A stretch of DNA of 62,354 bases from a virus, in the IMG/VR virus record IMGVR_UViG_3300015158_000001, positions 1-62,354 of that record. One strand, given 5' to 3'. Below, piece by piece: positions 1 to 62,354 of this stretch (positions are counted from its first letter, which is position 1; each line of letters opens with the position of its first letter). Position numbers and translations under genes: made by a program. The notes beneath the pieces are model-generated. The model did not search any database. It was given only the letters and a program-made list of their open reading frames with translations, and was not told where the DNA came from.

Positions 1-73
1 ACGCGACGTTCGCGTAGCGCGAGCCGGCGCGGCCGTCGCTCACCCAGGACCCGCCGAAGACGGAGGCGCGCGG
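1..73 (-). repeat. DGR variable repeat (VR), 5' segment
   Basis: This segment matches template-repeat positions 61783-61855 except at four places, all T on the plus strand, that is adenines of the minus-strand template: Met ATG to GTG, Asn AAC to AGC, and Asn AAC to CGC (two changes). Homology ends after position 73. The other segment of the VR lies at 62305-62354. Confidence 0.93.
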
Positions 74-829
74 TTCGTCCGGGTCGCCGTCGTGACCCCA
101 TGCCCACAGGTTCCCGGTCGCCTGCATCAGCCCGAACCGGCTGGTGCGCGCGACATCAAGCCCGGTGATGCGCGGGTCCTTGCGGCTGGCGGTCTTCTCG
201 GTGACACCGAAGGCCGCGGCGAAAAACTCCTCCACGCCGAGCAGGCCCTTGCCATGGTGCTTCATCACCGCGACGGCGGTCTCATAGTTGAAGCGACCGT
301 AACGGCCGCCATCCGGTTTCTGTGGCGGCGAGTCGCCATCCGCGATCGTGACGCCGAAGAGGCTGGTGCAATCCAGGTGATCGGCGCCGGTGAGGTAGAT
401 GTCGCACCAGAATTTGCCGGATGGCGCGTCGATCAGCGTCATGCCGCGCGGGTCCGGGCAGGCGGGGCGGAAGTTGCGGTCCCATACCGAGCACGGATTG
501 ATTGCCGGTACGTCGTCGCCACCGGCGCGGGCGACCGCGTTTCCACCAGGCGCGAAGTGGAAGCCACCGAGGATGTCGTCGCCCTGTGGCATGCCTCTCG
601 TGCGGTTCAAGGCGAAGCTTCCGTCCGCGGCGGTGACGACATAGTCGGCGCCGGGGATGAGGTCGATGCCGGGCACCGGCGTGTCGCCGCTGAAGAATAT
701 ACCGGCGAACGTCGTTCCAGCCTTGATCGCGATCGAGCTCGAGCCCGTCACCAGCAGCGCCGGAGAGCTCGGGTCAGTCTTGATCAGGACAGGTGACGCC
801 GCACTCTGTACGCTGATGGGCTTATTCAT
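1..829 (-). CDS. DGR variable protein (C-type lectin fold), first 276 codons; gene continues at 62354-62291
   Basis: This minus-strand frame starts at ATG 829-827 and runs off position 1. It resumes at 62354 and ends with TAG at 62293-62291. Visible length (829+64) plus the 7 nt missing relative to the template repeat gives 900 nt, exactly 300 codons, so the predicted protein has 299 residues. The middle part (ILGGFHFAPGGNA, FRPACPDPRGMTL, GVTIADGDSPP) and the end (MQATGNLWAWG, VFGGSW, GARGRSDHL) are typical of DGR-diversified receptor-binding proteins with a formylglycine-generating-enzyme/C-type-lectin fold. The last ~43 codons are the variable repeat. It starts 5 nt after the ASCH-like gene stops and so sits in the leftward early operon. 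Known members act as phage receptor-binding or surface ligand-binding proteins; the target here is unknown. Confidence 0.9.
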   Translation of the reverse strand, partial: MNKPISVQSAASPVLIKTDPSSPALLVTGSSSIAIKAGTTFAGIFFSGDTPVPGIDLIPGADYVVTAADGSFALNRTRGMPQGDDILGGFHFAPGGNAVARAGGDDVPAINPCSVWDRNFRPACPDPRGMTLIDAPSGKFWCDIYLTGADHLDCTSLFGVTIADGDSPPQKPDGGRYGRFNYETAVAVMKHHGKGLLGVEEFFAAAFGVTEKTASRKDPRITGLDVARTSRFGLMQATGNLWAWGHDGDPDEPRASVFGGSWVSDGRAGSRYANVA

Positions 830-48895: not shown

Positions 48896-49267
48896 TCAAA
48901 CGTTAGTTGGGGGTGGCGGTTCCTCAATTTCACGGCCTTCGGGCATCCGATCGCCGACCATGAACATGTCGGCTTCCTCCATCGTATGGGCGTTGTAGAG
49001 CCGAACGTCCGTCGAACCGCATCCGTGCCGACCGCACCTGAACTTCATGGTATTGACCAGCGTCTTGTTGCCGCGTCGGATGTGCTCGCAATCATCACTG
49101 GTGAGAGCACTACGGCGTCCGCAAGCCTTGCACTCGATACAGAGCGCGCCGCCATTGATAGCGATTCGTTCGAAGGGGAGTTCGGGGCCATAGGACGGAG
49201 GGACGTGGCTCATCTCGCCCCGCGGACGAGACTTGCCTTGCTCGGCGTCATTTGGCGGGCGGGACAT
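48896..49267 (-). CDS. zinc-ribbon hypothetical protein
   Basis: A 123-residue protein with a four-cysteine centre (CIECKACGRR ... CGRHGCG) typical of zinc ribbons. ATG 49267 overlaps the stop of the SRAP gene (TGATG). May bind nucleic acid; otherwise unrecognised. Confidence 0.65.
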   Translation of the reverse strand: MSRPPNDAEQGKSRPRGEMSHVPPSYGPELPFERIAINGGALCIECKACGRRSALTSDDCEHIRRGNKTLVNTMKFRCGRHGCGSTDVRLYNAHTMEEADMFMVGDRMPEGREIEEPPPPTNV

Positions 49268-49974
49268 CAGGCGGCTAACTCGATCGGCTGGATAAGCTCC
49301 GGATCGTCGCCGCTCGCGCGCGAACTGTTCACTCGCTGCGATACTGGCCATTTCCGCAGCATGTCCTCCGCCGCCGGCACCAACATCTCCTTGCCAGCCG
49401 ACCCATCGAGCCAGGCACCGAACTGGTCGGGCCGCAGCAGCACCGGCATACGGTCGTGCACCTCGGCGACGAACGCGTTCGGCTCGGCGATGACCATTGC
49501 GCACGAATGCAGCTCCTTGCCTTCGTTGTCCGGATCGTTCCAGCGGTCCCAAATGCCGGCGATCGTCAGGATTGGCGTGCCGTCACGCGCCGTGAAGTAA
49601 TAGGGCTGCGGCGGAGTGCCCTTCTTGGCGCCCGGCATGTGGTGCCATTCGTAATAGCCCGACACGGGCATCAGGCAGCGGTTGCGCTTCCAGATCCCGC
49701 GAAAGGTCGGCTTCACCTCGATCGTCTCTGTGCGCGCGTTGAAGGTCGCGACCTTCCAGTCCTTGATCGTCTTCTTGTGAAAAAACGGAATGATACCCCA
49801 ACGCATACGTTCGAACGCGCGCTTGCCGTCGCGCTGCACAATGGTTGGGACGATCTGTGTCGGGCAGACATTGTAGTTCGGCTCGAAATTCCAGGGCGGC
49901 GGCCCTTCCATCGCGAGATCGTAGAGCTTCGCGACGTCCGACCATTTGAGGTCGGAGGAATAGCGCCCGCACAT
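49267..49974 (-). CDS. SOS response-associated peptidase (SRAP, YedK/HMCES family)
   Basis: A 235-residue protein starting MCGRYSS, where Cys2 becomes N-terminal after Met removal and forms the thiazolidine crosslink with abasic sites. Other family motifs are present: FNARTETI, RCLMPVSGYYEW (active-site Glu) and HDRMPVLL (His). It shields abasic sites in single-stranded DNA; in a phage it may protect replication intermediates. ATG 49974 defined by the required MCGRY start. Confidence 0.95.
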   Translation of the reverse strand: MCGRYSSDLKWSDVAKLYDLAMEGPPPWNFEPNYNVCPTQIVPTIVQRDGKRAFERMRWGIIPFFHKKTIKDWKVATFNARTETIEVKPTFRGIWKRNRCLMPVSGYYEWHHMPGAKKGTPPQPYYFTARDGTPILTIAGIWDRWNDPDNEGKELHSCAMVIAEPNAFVAEVHDRMPVLLRPDQFGAWLDGSAGKEMLVPAAEDMLRKWPVSQRVNSSRASGDDPELIQPIELAA

Positions 49975-49996
49975 TGTAGCTGTCCTTTTGGTTTCT

Positions 49997-50380
49997 TCAG
50001 CGCGGCGCGTCGTGCGAAGGCCGCAGACCGTCAAGCTGCGCGAAGGGCGGATTGGGAGAACAACGCTGGCATGACAGCGACGGGATCAATCCGGTGATCG
50101 GCGTCTCAGGGTGTCGATCGAGCGTGCGCAGGTCGACCTCACCTTGCACCTGGCAGCCGGGGCAGTGGAAGGCGAGCAGCGGCAGCTCGGCTCGGATGGC
50201 GCCGTCGATCGTGGGGACGAACAGGGGCTCGGCGCCGCGCCGCCGGCGGGCATCCCAGAGGGCGAGCACGCGCGCCGCGAAGCGCGTGTCGGCCCGGCGC
50301 TGGGGTGCGGCCGCCATATGGTCGAACCACGCCTTGACGTGTGCCCGCTGGAGATACGCGCGTTCGGTCTCTCGGCCCAT
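49997..50380 (-). CDS. zinc-finger hypothetical protein
   Basis: A 127-residue protein. The C-terminal half (FHCPGCQVQGEVDLRTLDRH, then IPSLSCQRCSPNPPFAQLDG) is a four-Cys motif commonly seen in uncharacterised Rhizobiales proteins. ATG 50380; an upstream start at 50416 is possible. First gene of this small leftward block. Confidence 0.65.
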   Translation of the reverse strand: MGRETERAYLQRAHVKAWFDHMAAAPQRRADTRFAARVLALWDARRRRGAEPLFVPTIDGAIRAELPLLAFHCPGCQVQGEVDLRTLDRHPETPITGLIPSLSCQRCSPNPPFAQLDGLRPSHDAPR

Positions 50381-50720: not shown

Positions 50721-52367
50721 ATGGCAAATCCGATAGTGTTCCGGCGTAACCTAGACGTCGGTGCCGCCGACGCGGAGTCAGACGACCTATACCTCGCTAA
50801 CTGTTTTGTTGACACCGGCGACCTCCAGATACTCAAAGACTGTTCCGATCCGAAATGCCTCATATTGGGCCGCACGGGGTCGGGTAAGACCGCGTTGCTC
50901 AAACAGGTTCTAAAGGCTCCCTTTGCCGTTGACCTGTCGCCCGAAGATTTGGCGCTGAACTACATCACCAATTCACAAGTACTGAAGTTCTTTGAAGCGG
51001 CAGGCGTACACCTTGACGTCTTTTACACGCTCCTCTGGCGGCACATAATCACAGTCGAATTGCTGAAACTGAAGTACGGCATCACCAATCAAGAGAAACA
51101 AAATTTTTTCCTTAAAAAGATCGGGCAGATGTTCGATCGCAACGAGACCAAGACGAAAGCTCTGAAGTACCTTAGCGATTGGGGAAGCCGATTTTGGGAG
51201 GAAACGGAATATCGGACCAAGGAGTTCGTCCGGAAGCTTGAGACAGACCTCAAGGGCGCGGTGAAAATTGATGCGAAGTACATTGCGCTCGGTGCGGAGG
51301 GCGCACGCAAACTCACCGAAGAGGAGAGAATTGAGGTTCACAGCTACGGAACGCGCGTGGTCAATGGAGTTCAGGTCAAGGAGCTTCACGATGTCATAAA
51401 CCTGTTGTCTGAAGATATCTTCACCGATCCTCAGCAAGCGCACTATGTAGTGATTGATCGACTTGACGAGGACTGGGTGGACGACTCCATCCGGTTCAAG
51501 CTCATTAAGGCGCTTATCGAGGCGCTTCGAACGTTTAAGCGGGTGAGATATGTGAAGGTCATCGTAGCGCTGCGCATGGACCTCCACTTCCGGGTGCTTC
51601 GCGAGACGCCCCAACCAGGCTTTCAGGAGGAGAAGTATCGATCGCTGTACATGGAGATGAAGTGGACACGGCAACAGCTTGAAAAGATGTTGAATGACCG
51701 GGTCACTTTCATGTTCAGGCGACAATACACACGGGAGGGCGTACGCCTATCCGATATCTTGCCCGGCAACCAAATCGACCAACGCTCCTCCCTGGAGTAC
51801 ATCTTAGACCGCACCTTTTTTCGGCCGCGCGAGGCGATCATTTTCCTCAACGCATGCCTTGCGAAAGCCGAGGGAAAATCCAAAATTACGGTCGGCCTTC
51901 TTAAGCAGGCAGAGATGATCTACTCCCAGCAACGGTTTGTATCGCTCGCGGACGAATGGCGGCGCGACTATCCGAATTTGCAGAAAGCGGCGCTCCTGCT
52001 CTTGGAGAAGCGGGTCACACCCTTCACGCCGAAAGAAATATCGACCGAGGATTGCGAGAAGCTCTCATTATCGATCCTAGAAGACAAACATGAGGATGCG
52101 ATAAAGCGCTGCTGTGAGGCGCACTACCTTGCGAACAACAAAACCACTGAGGTGGACTTTCTCAGATGCATTCTGGCCATCTTCTACCAAGTAGGATTGA
52201 TTGGGGTGAAAGCAGAAGCGCACCTCAGCCGGTCGTGGTCCTTCATGGATGAGCCGGTTTTAGAACAAGGACAGATACACGAAACATCGATCATTGACGT
52301 CCACAAGACCTTCTGGGCAGCACTCGGGGTCACCACTCGTGACAAGCGCGCATCGAGTTCCTTGTGA
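50721..52367 (+). CDS. P-loop ATPase resembling the Sll1717 family; cargo gene
   Basis: A 548-residue protein. The N-terminus (CFVDTGDLQILKDCSDPKCL) leads to Walker A at residues 50-58 (ILGRTGSGKTALL), then LALNYITNSQVLKFFEAAGV and a Walker-B-like HYVVIDRLDEDWVDD near residue 245; this succession fits the Sll1717-type P-loop ATPases. The region is clearly AT-richer than the rest and stands alone on the plus strand between two minus-strand blocks with a terminator upstream, so it looks acquired. A role in host defence or superinfection exclusion is inference; alternatives are a signalling NTPase. Confidence 0.75.
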   Translation: MANPIVFRRNLDVGAADAESDDLYLANCFVDTGDLQILKDCSDPKCLILGRTGSGKTALLKQVLKAPFAVDLSPEDLALNYITNSQVLKFFEAAGVHLDVFYTLLWRHIITVELLKLKYGITNQEKQNFFLKKIGQMFDRNETKTKALKYLSDWGSRFWEETEYRTKEFVRKLETDLKGAVKIDAKYIALGAEGARKLTEEERIEVHSYGTRVVNGVQVKELHDVINLLSEDIFTDPQQAHYVVIDRLDEDWVDDSIRFKLIKALIEALRTFKRVRYVKVIVALRMDLHFRVLRETPQPGFQEEKYRSLYMEMKWTRQQLEKMLNDRVTFMFRRQYTREGVRLSDILPGNQIDQRSSLEYILDRTFFRPREAIIFLNACLAKAEGKSKITVGLLKQAEMIYSQQRFVSLADEWRRDYPNLQKAALLLLEKRVTPFTPKEISTEDCEKLSLSILEDKHEDAIKRCCEAHYLANNKTTEVDFLRCILAIFYQVGLIGVKAEAHLSRSWSFMDEPVLEQGQIHETSIIDVHKTFWAALGVTTRDKRASSSL

Positions 52368-52680: not shown

Positions 52681-54363
52681 TTACGGGAACAACCAATTCT
52701 GCGCCTTGAGTTCGCCGCGCCCGTCAATCAGCTCGAGCGATCGCAGCCGGCTCAAATATGTCGCCCATGTCCCCGATGCGGGGCTATAGCCCGCAGCCTC
52801 AGAAACCTGCGCATGTGACAGGCCTTGCGGGTAGTGCTCGAGCATCGGCCGAAGGATGCGGACGAGCGGGCGGTCGAGCTTTGACAGGACCGTCAGACGC
52901 AGCTGCTCGCCGGTCGGTGGCGAGGCTGGTTCGTTCACCGCGGCCACGCCCGCCTCGGTCAGCACCAGGCCCCCGCGCCCTTCGATGATGCCGGCGGAGC
53001 GAAGGCGGCTGAGATATGTCGCCCAGGTGCCGGACTTGTGCGAATAACCGGCGATAAAGCCGACCTGCGGATGGCTCGGAGCGGGGACGCCGAGCACATT
53101 CCACCACCGGATCGCGTCGATGATCTTCTGTTCCGGTCCGCTCAAAGTCCCATCGCCGCTCGCCGCCGGCGATGGGGTTGCGCGCCGGCTCGGGAGAGGC
53201 TTCTTGTGCTCGCGCGTCGACCAGCCCTCGATCGTTTTCACGTCGGCCTTGAGGGCGGCGAGCTGCTGCTCGAGCGGCGCGATCTTTTCGCGGATGCCGC
53301 CCATCATGCCGTGCGCGGTCTTCATCGCATCGGCGTAGCCTTCGATCTTGGCGCGCATCAGGGCCCGTTCGTCGGCGACCTTGACCTCGACGGTCTTGGT
53401 CTCGGCCGGTCGGACGCGGAGCTGATGCTGCAGGTCCGCGATCTGGGCCTTCAGCGCCTTCGGATCATTCGCCTTGGTTTCGGCCTCGACGGTCGCGAGC
53501 TTGTCCTTGAGCCCGGCGAGGTCGAGCGGCTTCAGGACGGTGTTGCGCTTCTTCTCGCCCCGCTTCGGCGTGCGCGAGCTATCGAAGGTGATGTTCTGCG
53601 GGAACGTCTCGGTCGAAAGAATGCCGCGCCCCGGGATCCACACCACGCCTTCGCCCTGCTTGAGCGTCGGCAGCGACGCCAGGATGGCCTTTCCCTGCTG
53701 CCGGTCGGCTTGCCCTTCGATCCAGGCGCCGATCGCATCGCGATCCTGCGACGAGGTGAGCTTGAGCGCGATCAGGCCGTCCGCCTGCGAAAGGACGTTC
53801 TTGTTGAGCACCGCCGGGCGCTGGGTGATCAGCCACGGGATGAAGCCCTTCACCCGGCCGCGCCGCACGATTTCTTCCATGAGGTGCGCCAGCATCGCCT
53901 CGTTCCCCATGGGCTTCTGCGGCGCCCACAGATCGGCCTCGTCGAAAACGACGTGATACGGATCCCGCGCGTCCGGATCGGTGCGCTCATAGAGCGCGTC
54001 GAGGAACGCGAGCATGAACCGCTGGCGCGCGGCGCTCGTGCGCAAGCCGGTCAACGACACGATGCAGCTATCCGGCGATCGCGCGACCGCTTCGCCGATC
54101 AGTGCACCGGAATGCTCGGTAATCGGCAGATCGGCGTGCTTGCCGCCGAGGATCGCGACGCTAAACCCGCCGCCAGGCTTGCCGTCAGAGCCAAGCCGCA
54201 ATCCGAACCAGACATCGAGCGGATCGACGACCACCACCCGGTGTTTTTTGTGCAGCAGCAGCTCGACGCGACCTTTCGCTGCGAATGTCTTGCCCGAACC
54301 CGACGTTCCGATGAACGCGAGCCGGTCATCGAGCGCGGCGGTCGGAATGGGATTGTGCGTCAC
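52681..54363 (-). CDS. HerA/FtsK-like ATPase with duplicated C-terminal winged-helix motif
   Basis: A 560-residue protein starting at GTG 54363, overlapping the upstream stop (GTGA). Walker A at residues 19-26 (IGTSGSGKTFAAK), Walker B VVFDEADLWAPQ near 150, and GFIPWLITQRPAVLNKNVL (arginine-finger/sensor region), as in HerA-type hexameric translocases. A coiled-coil stretch follows, then two copies of a motif ending SGTWATYLSRLRS (about residues 450-485 and 525-550), likely winged helices. Possible roles: DNA translocation, end processing or partition. No NurA nuclease gene adjoins it. Confidence 0.8.
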   Translation of the reverse strand: MTHNPIPTAALDDRLAFIGTSGSGKTFAAKGRVELLLHKKHRVVVVDPLDVWFGLRLGSDGKPGGGFSVAILGGKHADLPITEHSGALIGEAVARSPDSCIVSLTGLRTSAARQRFMLAFLDALYERTDPDARDPYHVVFDEADLWAPQKPMGNEAMLAHLMEEIVRRGRVKGFIPWLITQRPAVLNKNVLSQADGLIALKLTSSQDRDAIGAWIEGQADRQQGKAILASLPTLKQGEGVVWIPGRGILSTETFPQNITFDSSRTPKRGEKKRNTVLKPLDLAGLKDKLATVEAETKANDPKALKAQIADLQHQLRVRPAETKTVEVKVADERALMRAKIEGYADAMKTAHGMMGGIREKIAPLEQQLAALKADVKTIEGWSTREHKKPLPSRRATPSPAASGDGTLSGPEQKIIDAIRWWNVLGVPAPSHPQVGFIAGYSHKSGTWATYLSRLRSAGIIEGRGGLVLTEAGVAAVNEPASPPTGEQLRLTVLSKLDRPLVRILRPMLEHYPQGLSHAQVSEAAGYSPASGTWATYLSRLRSLELIDGRGELKAQNWLFP

Positions 54364-54680
54364 GACGCCTTCCGATCCCGCAGGCCCTTCAGCAAGGCGA
54401 TCTGCGCTTCGATCACGCGGGCATTCGCGATCCCGAGCTCCGGGCTGTTCGGCGCGATGACCTGGTCGGCGAGAGCCAGGAAGAATTCCCGCGCCAGTTC
54501 CGGCTGGCTCAATCCAAGCCATTGGGAGAGATAGATCACCGCGTCGACGGTGAAGCCCCACATGTCGTCGCCGGTTTCGTTGGTGTGGCCCCTGCAGGCG
54601 CGATCGAGGCGATGCTGCATGGACGCGCAGCGGGCTTCGCTGGTGTCTCTATTATTGTCGTTGACGGGGAGGGTGGTCAT
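54360..54680 (-). CDS. hypothetical protein
   Basis: A 106-residue protein (MTTLPVNDNNRDTSEARCAS; then WGFTVDAVIYLSQWLGLSQP), helical. Coupled on both sides by 4-nt overlaps, which ties it to the HerA-like ATPase as a possible partner. Confidence 0.6.
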   Translation of the reverse strand: MTTLPVNDNNRDTSEARCASMQHRLDRACRGHTNETGDDMWGFTVDAVIYLSQWLGLSQPELAREFFLALADQVIAPNSPELGIANARVIEAQIALLKGLRDRKAS

Positions 54681-59096: not shown

Positions 59097-59305
59097 GGCA
59101 GCGCCCCGATCTTTTCCCGGATCGCCGCCTCGTTGTCGCGCACGAACCGCAGCGTGCGCAGCGCGCTTTCCATCCGCTCGATTTGCGCCTCCGACACGGC
59201 CTTGCTGATCTGGCCGGAGCGTACCTTGCCCGGATGCGTGACCTGCCGCAGGCTCAGCTCGCGCGTCACTTCGTCGATCTGCTGTGCGATAGGGGCGACG
59301 GCCAT
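59087..59305 (-). CDS. small hypothetical helical protein
   Basis: A 72-residue protein (MAVAPIAQQIDEVTRELSLR; AQIERMESALRTLRFVRDNE). TGATG overlap with the helicase gene upstream, 10-nt overlap with the downstream gene. No family recognised. Confidence 0.6.
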   Translation of the reverse strand: MAVAPIAQQIDEVTRELSLRQVTHPGKVRSGQISKAVSEAQIERMESALRTLRFVRDNEAAIREKIGALPWR

Positions 59306-60516
59306 CACACCACCACCGTCAATCGCTCGGCCGCGCGGGTGACGCCGGTATAGAGCCAGCGCGCGCGATCGGGACCGAATGATGCGCTCTCGTTGAACAG
59401 CATCACGTTGTTCCACTGCGAGCCCTGCGACTTGTGCACGGTGAGCGCGTAGCCGAATGTGAACTGCTGGAATTTTCTCAGCTCCTCCCACTCAAGCTCG
59501 CTCTCGCGACCCTCGAAGAAGAACGGATGGACCTTCACTTCGATCTTGCGCGCGACCGCGCCCGCATCTTCCGGCCTGAGAACGAGGCGGACCGCCGCGG
59601 CGTTCGCCTTGCGGACCCTGTCGACGCGCCAGATGCCGCCGTTGAACAGGCCGCGCTGCCGATCGTTCTTGAGGCAGACGAGCTTTTCATCGACTTCGGG
59701 CGTCGGCTTGCGAATGTTCTTCATCACCCGGATTCGGCCGTTGTAGGTGACGCGCGTTTTGTTGAGGCCAACGAGCACCTGATCGGCGCGCAGCACCGCC
59801 ATCGGATCGTCCTTGAGTGCCGCGCGCTCGATGACGCGGCATGCACCGAAGTCGCCGAGCGGGATCGGCTTTCCGGCGCGGATGTCCATCGAAAGCCGGA
59901 TGATCGGGTTGTCGCGGGCCTGGCGGTGAACCTCGGTGAGCATCACGTCGGGCTCGCCGACGGTGAAGAAGCCGACGTCCTGGACGGGCGGGAGCTGCGC
60001 CGGATCGCCGAGCACCAGCACCTTCACGCCGAAGCTCAACAGATCCTGCGCGAGCTCGGCGCCGACCATCGAGCATTCGTCCACGATGAGCAGCGTCGCA
60101 TCGGCGAGCTTGCTGGCCTCATTGAGGATGAACTTCGGTGCGCCGGCGACGTCCTCATCGAGCGTGTAGATCAGGCTGTGGATCGTGCTCGCGTCGTGGC
60201 AGCCCTTCGATTGCATGACCAGCGCGGCCTTGCCGGTGAAGGCGGCGAACAGAACCTTGCCGGTAAATTCCTCCCCGCCGATCAGCTTCGCGATCTCGAT
60301 CGCGAGTGTCGTCTTGCCGGTGCCGGCATAGCCGAACACCTTGAACACCTGGCCCCCGCCCGCGGCCTTGAACCATTCCGACACGGACTTGAGCGCCGCT
60401 TCCTGCTGCGGCGACCATTCGAGCCTCGCGGGCGCCAAGCCGACCGGGACAGCGAGCGGCAGCGGCGCACCCAGGGGCGGCGTTTCGGGCAAGGTGCCGG
60501 CGAAAAGATCAGCCAT
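59305..60516 (-). CDS. RecD2/Dda-like SF1 helicase
   Basis: A 403-residue protein. Motif I at residues 62-71 (GYAGTGKTTLA), motif II LLIVDECSMVG near 145, motif III VLVLGDPAQLPPV, and late motifs YALTVHKSQGSQW and ARWLYTGVTRAAERL. This is the small RecD-like/Dda group of 5'-3' helicases used in phage replication or recombination. ATG 60516 lies 8 nt inside the end of the DGR reverse transcriptase gene. Confidence 0.93.
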   Translation of the reverse strand: MADLFAGTLPETPPLGAPLPLAVPVGLAPARLEWSPQQEAALKSVSEWFKAAGGGQVFKVFGYAGTGKTTLAIEIAKLIGGEEFTGKVLFAAFTGKAALVMQSKGCHDASTIHSLIYTLDEDVAGAPKFILNEASKLADATLLIVDECSMVGAELAQDLLSFGVKVLVLGDPAQLPPVQDVGFFTVGEPDVMLTEVHRQARDNPIIRLSMDIRAGKPIPLGDFGACRVIERAALKDDPMAVLRADQVLVGLNKTRVTYNGRIRVMKNIRKPTPEVDEKLVCLKNDRQRGLFNGGIWRVDRVRKANAAAVRLVLRPEDAGAVARKIEVKVHPFFFEGRESELEWEELRKFQQFTFGYALTVHKSQGSQWNNVMLFNESASFGPDRARWLYTGVTRAAERLTVVV

Positions 60517-61528
60517 TCGGCCCTCCCGTCTCGCCCTCGGCCGGCGTCAACAGCAACCCGAGACTGCGGATCAGATTGGCGCTATCGGCGAAGCGCGCGT
60601 GGCCGAACCAGGCGGCGAGGAATTTTCGCAACCGTTCGTGATCGCCGTTAGCCCGATAGGCCGCGATCTTCCGCCGCGCGCGGATGACGCTGTCACGGCG
60701 CAGGAGCTTGTGGGTTTTCCAGATGCGATAGCCGAGGAAGTTGATGCCGCGGCGAGCGGGCGCGATCGACCATTTCGAGAATCGCAAGGACAGCTCGTCG
60801 CGCGAGAACGCCTCGATGCTCTCCTTCACGCGGCGCAGATGCTCGGACGAGTGGCTGAGCACCACGAGATCGTCCATGTAGCGAAACCAGTAATCCTCGC
60901 CCAGCGTCTGCTGCAGGTGACGGTCGAGCGTGGCGCCGGCATAGAGATTGGCGAAGATCTGGGATGTGAGGCTGCCGATCGGCAGGCCGATGCCATGGCG
61001 CGGCACCATGGCTTCGATCAGCCGCAGCGTGGCACGGCAGCTGATCTTCGCCTCGATCAGGCGCCATAGCGTCGCGCGCTCGATCGACGCGAAGTAGGCG
61101 GAAAAATCGGTCTTGAGGAAATAGACCGGTCCGGACCGGCCCAGCCGCCGCAGATCGCTTTGCAGCGCGATCGCGCCGGCATGCGTGCCCTTGCCGGGAC
61201 GGCAGGCGAAGCAGCGCGGCAACAATGCGCGATCGAAGATCGGCGCGATGACAAGGCAGAGCGCTTGCTGCGCGACGCGATCGCGGAACGGCAATGCCGA
61301 GATCAACCGGCGCTTGGGATCGTAGACGTAGAATTCGTTCGGGGTTCCCGGCTCATAGGCGCCGTTCGCCATGTCGTCGGCGAGATCGCCAAGATTGACG
61401 ACATCGTATTCCTTGAAGGTGAGAAAACCGGCCGTCAGGCGCTTGCCGCGCGATGTCAGGCGATAGGCCTTTTGCATCGTCGCCGGCGAGGTGATCTGGC
61501 CGATCAGATTTCGATAACGCTTACCCAT
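60509..61528 (-). CDS. DGR reverse transcriptase
   Basis: A 339-residue protein. RT motifs: FLKTDFSAYFASI (Asp141), GLPIGSLTSQ at 181-190, the catalytic YMDD at 217-220, and INFLGYRIW at 262-270. The (I/L)GxxxSQ form of the fourth motif is the recognised hallmark separating DGR enzymes from group II intron and retron RTs. The start MGKRYRNLIG at 61528 is chosen by family length; the same frame stays open upstream through the TR to ATG 61861. With Avd it makes mutated cDNA from the TR transcript, with adenine-directed errors. Confidence 0.95.
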   Translation of the reverse strand: MGKRYRNLIGQITSPATMQKAYRLTSRGKRLTAGFLTFKEYDVVNLGDLADDMANGAYEPGTPNEFYVYDPKRRLISALPFRDRVAQQALCLVIAPIFDRALLPRCFACRPGKGTHAGAIALQSDLRRLGRSGPVYFLKTDFSAYFASIERATLWRLIEAKISCRATLRLIEAMVPRHGIGLPIGSLTSQIFANLYAGATLDRHLQQTLGEDYWFRYMDDLVVLSHSSEHLRRVKESIEAFSRDELSLRFSKWSIAPARRGINFLGYRIWKTHKLLRRDSVIRARRKIAAYRANGDHERLRKFLAAWFGHARFADSANLIRSLGLLLTPAEGETGGPNG

Positions 61529-61861
61529 GACGCGCACCCGATACGCAACGGAAAAGAGGAAGCCGGCCGCGGGTCTCGACGGGATCGAGCGCGCGCCCGC
61601 CCCGCTACGCCCCGCTCTGCCGGACCGTGAAGTGTGTTCGCCGAAGCAGGACAGGCGGGCTGACCACCGACCTTGATCGAGCATGGTCGACCGGCGGGAC
61701 CGTAATCGCCGCCGAGCCATGAACCGGTCGTCACTGCGGCCCCGCGCCCCGAGGTCGTCGTTGGAGTTGTCGGGCCAGTTGTACGCGACGTTCGCGTAGC
61801 GCGAGCCGGCGTTGCCGTCGTTCATCCAGGACCCGCCGAAGACGGAGGCGCGCGGCATCAT
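61529..61861 (-). other. open frame running from avd stop through the TR into the RT
   Basis: The avd stop (TGA 61860-61858) overlaps an ATG at 61861, and this frame has no stop until the end of the RT gene. Its first 43 codons are the TR read in the same frame as the variable protein (starting MMPRASVFGGSW). Translation would give an RT with a 111-residue extension. The TR RNA may simply be read by ribosomes; its main role is as template. Confidence 0.6.
61726..61855 (-). repeat. DGR template repeat (TR), 130 bp
   Basis: Homologous to the variable repeat at 62305-62354 and 1-73. On the minus strand it has six AAC codons (Asn), the codon that adenine mutagenesis can turn into the widest residue range, and ends in a GC-rich, adenine-poor stretch (CTCGGGGCGCGGGGCCGC), the expected initiation region for mutagenic homing. 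It lies between avd and the RT gene. Confidence 0.95.
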
Positions 61862-62256
61862 TTCCCCGCTTGCCCTATCGGACGCGTTGGCGCGTCCGAA
61901 CGGGATCGCTCAAGCTTCTTCTGCCACGCGCCGAGCATCTTCCCCGCTTCGCCAAGAAGCGCGAGCGCCGTCTTGTGCTGCTGCGGGCCGATGATCCGGA
62001 AGGCGTAGAGGAAGCGCAGATAGGCCCGCAGGGTCGCGAACTCAGCATCGACGGCATGCAGCCGTGACACCTGCCGCGACCGCGCGGCGTGATAGAGGCC
62101 GCCGACCGGCTCGAACAGATCGTGCAACACGCGGTCGCGAAGAACGCCGTGTTTGCGCGGGCTCGTTTGCAGGATCGGATAGAGATAGTGCACGAAGGCC
62201 TCATACTTCTCGACGATAGCCAAGCCGTCTGTTGCGAGATTTTCGGTGGCGACCAT
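61858..62256 (-). CDS. avd: Avd, DGR accessory variability determinant
   Basis: A 132-residue, basic, four-helix-type protein (IVEKYEAFVHYLYPILQTSP; LFEPVGGLYHAARSR; FATLRAYLRFLYAFRII). This resembles Avd/four-helix bundle proteins of the S23-like family, which form pentamers, bind the TR RNA flank and the RT, and are needed for cDNA synthesis. ATG 62256 follows the variable protein's stop by 34 nt; the stop is coupled to the TR-containing frame. Confidence 0.88.
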   Translation of the reverse strand: MVATENLATDGLAIVEKYEAFVHYLYPILQTSPRKHGVLRDRVLHDLFEPVGGLYHAARSRQVSRLHAVDAEFATLRAYLRFLYAFRIIGPQQHKTALALLGEAGKMLGAWQKKLERSRSDAPTRPIGQAGK

Positions 62257-62271
62257 CGTCGCGGCTCAAGC

Positions 62272-62291
62272 GCCGTCGCTGCCGCGACGGC
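62272..62291 (-). other. hairpin/cruciform just downstream of the variable repeat
   Basis: Perfect 8-bp GC-rich stem GCCGTCGC/GCGACGGC. Read in the direction of the variable gene the loop is GGCA, which fits the GRNA tetraloop described for target-site hairpins of DGRs (Bordetella phage BPP-1 type). It starts 13 nt after the VR end and touches the stop codon of the variable protein. Confidence 0.8.
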
Positions 62292-62354
62292 TAGACAAGC
62301 TGCAGGTGGTCACTGCGGCCCCGCGCCCCGAGGTCGTCGTGGGAGTTGTCGGGC
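62291..62354 (-). CDS. DGR variable protein, last 21 codons (gene starts at 829)
   Basis: Reads PDNSHDDLGARGRSDHLQLV and TAG (62293-62291). GARGRSDHL is the conserved end of DGR-diversified lectin-fold proteins. In the template the same stretch reads PDNSNDD; the Asn-to-His change is one A-to-C event. The join to the 1-829 part lacks 7 nt in this window. Confidence 0.9.
   Translation of the reverse strand, partial: PDNSHDDLGARGRSDHLQLV
62305..62354 (-). repeat. DGR variable repeat (VR), 3' segment
   Basis: Matches TR positions 61726-61775 except at one adenine (Asn AAC to His CAC) and at the extreme end (position 62308, template G versus C), where the homology fades. That last difference is the kind that distinguishes the VR homing site from its TR counterpart. 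Confidence 0.93.

What the first reader, a model, noticed from the sequence alone, without database searches (positions are those of the whole stretch)
60509..62354. Complete diversity-generating retroelement in a temperate alphaproteobacterial siphophage
Variable protein, target hairpin, Avd, template repeat and a DGR-type reverse transcriptase ((I/L)GxxxSQ and YMDD motifs) follow each other on the minus strand. All parts needed for targeted hypermutation are present and intact, so the phage can probably diversify a lectin-fold binding protein.
Basis: partly seen in the sequence, partly recalled or inferred. Interest (0 to 1): 0.95.

Follow-up and report, generated by a model that had tools for sequence, protein, structure and literature searches.

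The report
Phage hypermutation cassette with translated template
This phage carries a complete, ordinary-looking cassette for rapidly mutating the tip of its host-binding protein; the less ordinary part is that, here and in about 65 relatives, the supposedly non-coding template RNA sits inside a reading frame kept open between the two helper genes, so ribosomes probably pass through the template to make the mutating enzyme.

Summary
The finding is real, with one correction. Only the last ~20 codons of the variable protein lie there. The rest, a homologue of the BPP-1 Major Tropism Determinant, is at the other end of the contig (829-1, minus). The genome was cut inside the variable repeat and 7 bases are missing at the join. 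All 5 TR/VR differences lie at TR adenines, as do 366 of 410 in 30 TR/VR pairs from relatives. That is a known kind of system. The extra result: TR and structural RNA lie inside a reading frame that starts on the Avd stop codon (ATGATG, 61861) and runs into the RT (450 aa in all). In 65 of 66 related loci this linking frame is kept open. TR-to-RT length changed about 46 times on the tree, but phase only about 8 times. All nine loci out of phase end their frame at the RT start, seven by an exact ATGA overlap. I infer that ribosomes traverse the template to reach the RT. BPP-1, the laboratory model, lacks this.

The parts
60509..61528 (-). DGR reverse transcriptase, 339 aa from its conserved own start codon
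   Evidence: RVT_1 E 1e-16; PDB 8ub7 (BPP-1 RT) E 8.9e-110; 53.7% identity to BPP-1 bRT
60509..61861 (-). Linking reading frame: ATG overlapping the Avd stop, through TR and spacer RNA, in frame into RT (450 aa)
   Evidence: conserved in 65 of 66 clade loci; 46 length but only 8 phase changes on the tree
61562..61717 (-). DGR spacer RNA (Rfam RF03022 Phage_DGR) downstream of TR; in BPP-1 it recruits RT-Avd and primes cDNA synthesis
   Evidence: 73.9 bits, gathering score 50; the same family matches BPP-1 and 6 relatives
61732..61855 (-). Template repeat (TR)
   Evidence: direct repeat of the VR; mismatches only at TR adenines
61858..62256 (-). Avd (accessory variability determinant), 132 aa
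   Evidence: NF033474 109.2 bits (cut-off 80), PF22296 91.8 bits (cut-off 40), PDB 4dwl E 4e-22
62272..62291 (-). Target hairpin GCCGTCGC-GGCA-GCGACGGC just after the variable repeat
   Evidence: perfect 8-bp stem, GRNA loop; present on the VR side and not the TR side in many relatives; chance about 1% per 90 nt
62291..62354 (-). C-terminal end of the variable protein, holding the 3' part of the VR (62310-62354)
   Evidence: reading frame PDNSHDDLGARGRSDHLQLV*
1..829 (-). Variable protein, codons 1-276, Mtd homologue; the 5' part of the VR is at 73-1
   Evidence: PDB 1yu4 E 3.1e-43; phrog_11262 tail protein E 1.4e-68
59305..60516 (-). Helicase (Dda/RecD-like) whose start overlaps the RT stop by 8 nt; the next gene of the same operon
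   Evidence: phrog_325 E 1.3e-100; coordinates

Best explanation
A complete BPP-1/Mtd-type diversity-generating retroelement of a temperate tailed phage. The RT-Avd complex copies the TR RNA with errors at adenines; the cDNA replaces the VR at the 3' end of an Mtd-like receptor-binding protein, with the hairpin marking the target (anatomy shown here; mechanism taken from BPP-1). In this DGR lineage the template is also a translated spacer: ribosomes finishing Avd restart at an overlapping ATG, read through TR and the spacer RNA, and reach the RT gene, giving a TR-RT fusion and probably also RT from its own start codon. The same RNA can then serve as RT message when ribosomes cover it, or fold and act as template when they do not (frame conservation shown; translation, coupling and the switch inferred).
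For: DGR; relatives show 366 of 713 TR adenines changed against 44 of 2937 other bases. Linking frame: open from TR start to RT start in 64 of 67 loci, against 19 and 1 in the other two frames and 43% expected from shuffles of the spacer; a start codon at the Avd stop in 65 of 66 loci, ATG in 64, at offset -1 (ATGA overlap) in 48. About 46 length changes but about 8 phase changes on the RT tree (P = 8e-12 if 2/3 of indels shifted phase). All 9 phase-shifted loci stop within -13 to +5 nt of the RT start, 7 of them at exactly +1; that state needs at least 6 changes on the tree, 2 forced by well-supported branches. Where two genes lie between TR and RT (L031), the TR frame ends TGA-ATG at the first and the second ends ATGA at RT. 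In about five fused loci the spacer motif is read in another frame but the RT phase is restored. Cultured phages VP58.5 and ACA1 carry the same fused frame, annotated as a long RT starting on the Avd stop; phiARM81mr likewise starts just after it.
Against: No expression, ribosome or protein data. Loci are related, so raw counts overstate independence; the binomial P-values ignore this. Codon-position variation in the spacer is not significant (p = 0.10), so selection on the encoded peptide is not shown. BPP-1, Chromohalobacter phage YPCBV-1 and two Vibrio phages lack a linking frame. L114 has an in-frame stop at -153. The window's own VR is interrupted by the contig ends.
Confidence: 0.77

Rival explanations
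1. An ordinary DGR with an untranslated TR; the frame from Avd to RT is open by chance because the DNA is about 70% GC.
For: Shuffled spacers of the same composition are open 43% of the time. BPP-1 works without a linking frame. The peptide shows no clear codon-level selection.
Against: 64 of 67 open against 19 and 1 in the other frames; phase kept through about 46 length changes; phase-shifted loci end at the RT start; cases at 45-50% GC in ACA1 and VP58.5, where shuffles are open in 0.6% and 2%.
Confidence: 0.12
2. The TR/spacer-encoded segment is a functional N-terminal domain of the RT (arginine-rich, perhaps binding the DGR RNA); the fusion protein itself is what is selected.
For: 56 of 70 clade loci are in-frame fusions; the spacer peptide is arginine-rich and similar in many members.
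Against: No third-position excess; some lineages read the spacer in another frame, so the peptide differs; residues 1-114 have pLDDT of about 25-30 (shallow 15-sequence alignment); seven loci split it from RT by ATGA; RT residue 1 is a start codon in 56 of 56 fused loci, so internal initiation is also kept.
Confidence: 0.1
3. Translation through TR/spacer is kept only to prevent Rho-dependent transcription termination in an otherwise untranslated 330-nt stretch; there is no coupling or switch.
For: It would explain why only openness and arrival at RT matter, not the peptide.
Against: Rho avoidance alone does not need phase with RT or exact ATGA ends, though these are cheap ways to reach RT. 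Not separable from coupling with these tools.
Confidence: 0.25
4. The RT belongs to a group II intron or retron, not a DGR.
For: Weak below-cut-off matches to group II and retron models.
Against: 370 bits to BPP-1 RT against 43 to the best group II RT; Avd, TR/VR and RF03022 alongside.
Confidence: 0.01

Closest known systems
Bordetella phage BPP-1 DGR (mtd-avd-TR-brt)
   Same: Same gene order and strand, homologous variable protein (44%), Avd (48%) and RT (54%), same spacer RNA family, 8-bp GRNA-type hairpin after the VR.
   Different: BPP-1 has no reading frame linking avd to brt: its TR lies in another frame and the target-frame ORF stops 31 nt before brt. BPP-1 is described as a podovirus (own knowledge); this phage has siphovirus-type tail genes.
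DGRs of Vibrio phage VP58.5, Pseudoalteromonas phage ACA1, Aeromonas phages phiARM81mr and phiWae15
   Same: A linking frame through the TR: fused to RT in the first three, and a separate 91-codon ORF ending 2 nt before the RT ATG in phiWae15.
   Different: RT only 35-41% identical.
[quoted passage not shown] PMC3521204)
   Same: The long annotated RT of this lineage would fall in that class.
   Different: That paper treats it as an arrangement, infers that spatial arrangement is irrelevant and that RT and TR RNAs are transcribed separately; it reports no test of frame conservation in the passages read.
Metagenomic DGR catalogue of 31,007 DGRs (PMC8144416)
   Same: This cassette is one more member of a very common kind.
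   Different: Its main text, as searched, does not mention translation of the TR; its supplements were not readable here.

Membership tests
Diversity-generating retroelement | DGR-type reverse transcriptase with intact catalytic motif | tested here: met
   PDB 8ub7 E 8.9e-110, phrog_1423 E 7e-107, YMDD and GLPIGSLTSQ present
Diversity-generating retroelement | TR/VR pair with mismatches at TR adenines | tested here: met
   5 of 5 in the window, P 5e-5; 366 of 410 in 30 pairs from relatives
Diversity-generating retroelement | Accessory protein Avd | tested here: met
   NF033474 and PF22296 over cut-off
Diversity-generating retroelement | Structured spacer RNA downstream of TR | tested here: met
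   RF03022 73.9 bits, gathering score 50
Diversity-generating retroelement | VR at the 3' end of a C-type-lectin-fold target gene, followed by a hairpin (phage DGRs) | tested here: met
   Mtd homologue E 3e-43 and 8-bp hairpin; the fold itself rests on homology, and the VR is split by the contig ends
Diversity-generating retroelement | Mutagenic retrohoming takes place | not testable with these tools
   No reads or phage; TR/VR divergence shows past activity only
Temperate siphovirus | Integrase plus long non-contractile tail genes | tested here: met
   PF00589 integrase; tape measure and tail assembly families; contractile-sheath genes and a repressor were not systematically searched
Translationally coupled linking frame through TR (proposed) | Frame from the Avd stop to the RT start kept open and in phase, or ending at the RT start | tested here: met
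   65 of 66 clade loci
Translationally coupled linking frame through TR (proposed) | Translation actually takes place and RT depends on it | not testable with these tools
   needs ribosome profiling or constructs

The most novel reading that the evidence does not exclude
In a large alphaproteobacterial phage DGR lineage, and separately in some gammaproteobacterial phages, the template RNA is an obligatory translated spacer: RT is made only by ribosomes that pass through TR and the spacer RNA, so translation and templating compete on one RNA and set the rate of diversification.
Probability: 0.35. Interest if true: 0.72.

Novelty: new variant of a known kind. Interest (0 to 1): 0.5.

Why it matters
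The DGR itself is one of tens of thousands known. The linking frame matters because DGR template RNA is described as non-coding (PMC8867640). If ribosomes must pass through it to make the RT, DGR activity has a built-in translational control that the BPP-1 model lacks and that can be tested directly. It also warns that annotated long RTs in such phages contain the TR, and that trans-complementation designs taken from BPP-1 may mis-set RT level here.

Tried and rejected
Collection scans for near-identical TR/VR copies with adenines free: none in viral contigs, so no direct VR-variant census of this phage. Gene neighbours across the contig join: none of the genes upstream of the variable protein is shared with relatives, so the circular join rests on the VR and reading frame alone. 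Codon-position test for a functional spacer peptide: not significant. AlphaFold of the 450-aa fusion: residues 1-114 unfolded by confidence. Class- and order-wide genome searches added no members beyond the Afipia-like set. DNA folding of the hairpin with flanks was not better than shuffles (z -1.3); the case for the hairpin rests on its conserved position and form in relatives. Contig ends falling at the VR as evidence of living diversity: 6 of 18 RT-bearing contigs that reach an upstream end break at or just before the VR, but none of the 18 variable-protein loci in the list appears cut at its VR, so this stays suggestive.

Full report
OBSERVATION. Avd (61858-62256), TR (about 61732-61855), RT (60509-61528) and the hairpin (62272-62291) are there. 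The RT carries GLPIGSLTSQ and YMDD, matches RVT_1, and is closest to the BPP-1 RT solved as 8ub7 (370 bits; best group II RT 43 bits). Avd is over the NCBIfam and Pfam cut-offs and matches the solved BPP-1 Avd.

CORRECTION. The variable protein is split by the contig ends. Its last ~20 codons are at 62354-62291 and codons 1-276 at 829-1, both minus. Relative to the TR, seven bases (ACAACTG) are missing at the join; with them the frame closes as ...RYANVA-xxx-PDNSHDDLGARGRSDHLQLV*. There is no terminal repeat. The protein is an Mtd homologue (PDB 1yu4 E 3e-43; phrog_11262). Over 117 comparable bases there are five TR/VR differences, all at TR adenines (A>G three, A>C two; P = 5e-5). In 30 TR/VR pairs from relatives, 366 of 713 adenines and 44 of 2937 other positions differ; many of the latter are a recurrent G>C near the 3' end of the repeat, where BPP-1 has its IMH/IMH* differences.

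MISSED PART. Rfam RF03022 (Phage_DGR) covers 61562-61717(-) at 73.9 bits against a gathering score of 50; BPP-1 and six relatives score over the cut-off too. In BPP-1 this spacer RNA recruits the RT-Avd complex and primes cDNA synthesis (PMC12875486).

PHAGE AND HOST. Terminase, portal, head-tail adaptor, tape measure, tail assembly and endolysin families and a tyrosine integrase fit a temperate siphovirus. The nearest named terminases are from Brevundimonas phages, 48% identical. The one named bacterial relative above 70% RT identity is an Afipia MAG, and five of 297 genomes of that family carry a close RT. Alphaproteobacterial host: likely, inferred.

LINKING FRAME. The RT reading frame of the window is open upstream to an ATGATG whose first ATG overlaps the Avd stop (61861). 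Inside it, the TR is read in the same frame as in the variable protein, then the whole spacer RNA, then RT: 450 aa. I asked whether this is chance at about 70% GC. From searches with the RT, and one with the variable protein, I took 70 distinct loci with RT at least 66% identical; the frame played no part in their selection. The target-frame ORF is open from TR start to RT start in 64 of 67 usable loci, against 19 and 1 in the other frames; dinucleotide shuffles of the spacer are open 43% of the time. A start codon sits at the Avd stop in 65 of 66 loci, ATG in 64, most often at offset -1. The TR-to-RT length takes 34 values in 65 loci. On an IQ-TREE RT tree this needs about 46 changes, yet phase needs about 8. 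If two thirds of indels shifted phase, 8 or fewer of 46 has P = 8e-12; this treats changes as independent and is only a guide.

EXCEPTIONS THAT SUPPORT IT. Nine loci have TR out of phase with RT. In seven (L048, L069, L081, L082, L084, L129, L132) the TR-spacer frame stops exactly at +1 of the RT ATG (ATGA); in L104 it stops at +5 and in L124 at -13. On the tree the ATGA state needs six changes, at least two forced by well-supported branches. In the Afipia locus L031, where two small genes lie between TR and RT, the TR frame ends TGA directly before the first inserted gene's ATG and the second ends ATGA at RT. In L053 Avd itself runs ATGA into RT with no TR between. Some fused loci (L030, L049, L074, L122) read the spacer motif in a different frame, yet RT is back in phase. 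L114 is the one plain exception (in-frame stop at -153).

WHAT IS SELECTED. Arrival of ribosomes at RT, rather than the peptide: codon-position variation in the spacer is 0.40/0.32/0.40, p = 0.10 for a third-position excess; AlphaFold gives no structure for residues 1-114 (only 15 sequences). RT's own first codon is ATG, GTG or TTG in 56 of 56 fused loci, so initiation there is probably also kept. The window's own RT start shows no Shine-Dalgarno-like motif, though 24 of 56 fused loci do.

BREADTH. In cultured phages the same layout is hidden in annotation. VP58.5 gp20 and ACA1 gp44 are long RTs that start on the Avd stop and contain the TR, at 50% and 45% GC where shuffles are open in 2% and 0.6%. 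phiARM81mr has a fused RT starting just after the Avd stop. phiWae15 has a 91-codon 'hypothetical protein' that is the TR frame, ending 2 nt before the RT ATG. Chromohalobacter YPCBV-1, two Vibrio phages and BPP-1 lack a linking frame, and in Pseudomonas phage Bise the frame opens at ATGA but stops early.

LITERATURE. DiGReF group 3 already lists DGRs whose TR overlaps the annotated RT ORF, but concludes that arrangement is irrelevant and that RT and TR RNAs are probably separate (PMC3521204). A review describes TR as ncRNA (PMC8867640). No held paper found here reports conservation of a frame through TR; subscription papers, preprints and supplements were not searchable, so priority is uncertain.

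VERDICT. DGR identity: about 0.97. Linking frame conserved by selection: about 0.85. Translated in vivo: about 0.75. Competition between translation and templating: about 0.35.

Noticed in passing
window 62354 / 1; L023, L024, L025, L026, L028, L029: Contig ends fall in or just before the VR in the window and in 6 of 18 relatives that reach an upstream contig end. This may be assembly failure caused by living VR diversity; TR and VR share at most 32 exact bases in the window. No comparable cut is seen in the variable-protein hits.
   Followed up: partly
L008, L009, L030: Two VRs for one TR: a second variable-protein VR about 1 kb upstream of the first, both with adenine-directed changes.
   Followed up: no
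L053:3900-4440 and L012: Avd followed directly by RT (ATGA, L053) or by other sequence (L012) with no TR found between; possibly decayed or rearranged DGRs.
   Followed up: no
L031:9467-10003: Two small genes inserted between the spacer RNA and RT in the Afipia DGR, joined by TGA-ATG and ATGA junctions.
   Followed up: partly
window 60509-60516: RT stop and helicase start overlap by 8 nt, so the coupled series Avd, TR frame, RT probably continues into the helicase.
   Followed up: no
window 49267-50034: SRAP (SOS response-associated peptidase) gene carried by the phage (PF02586 E 7e-60).
   Followed up: no
window 52681-54561 and 50721-52367: A HerA-like ATPase (below cut-off) and a 548-aa protein matching an unknown phage family; roles unknown.
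   Followed up: no
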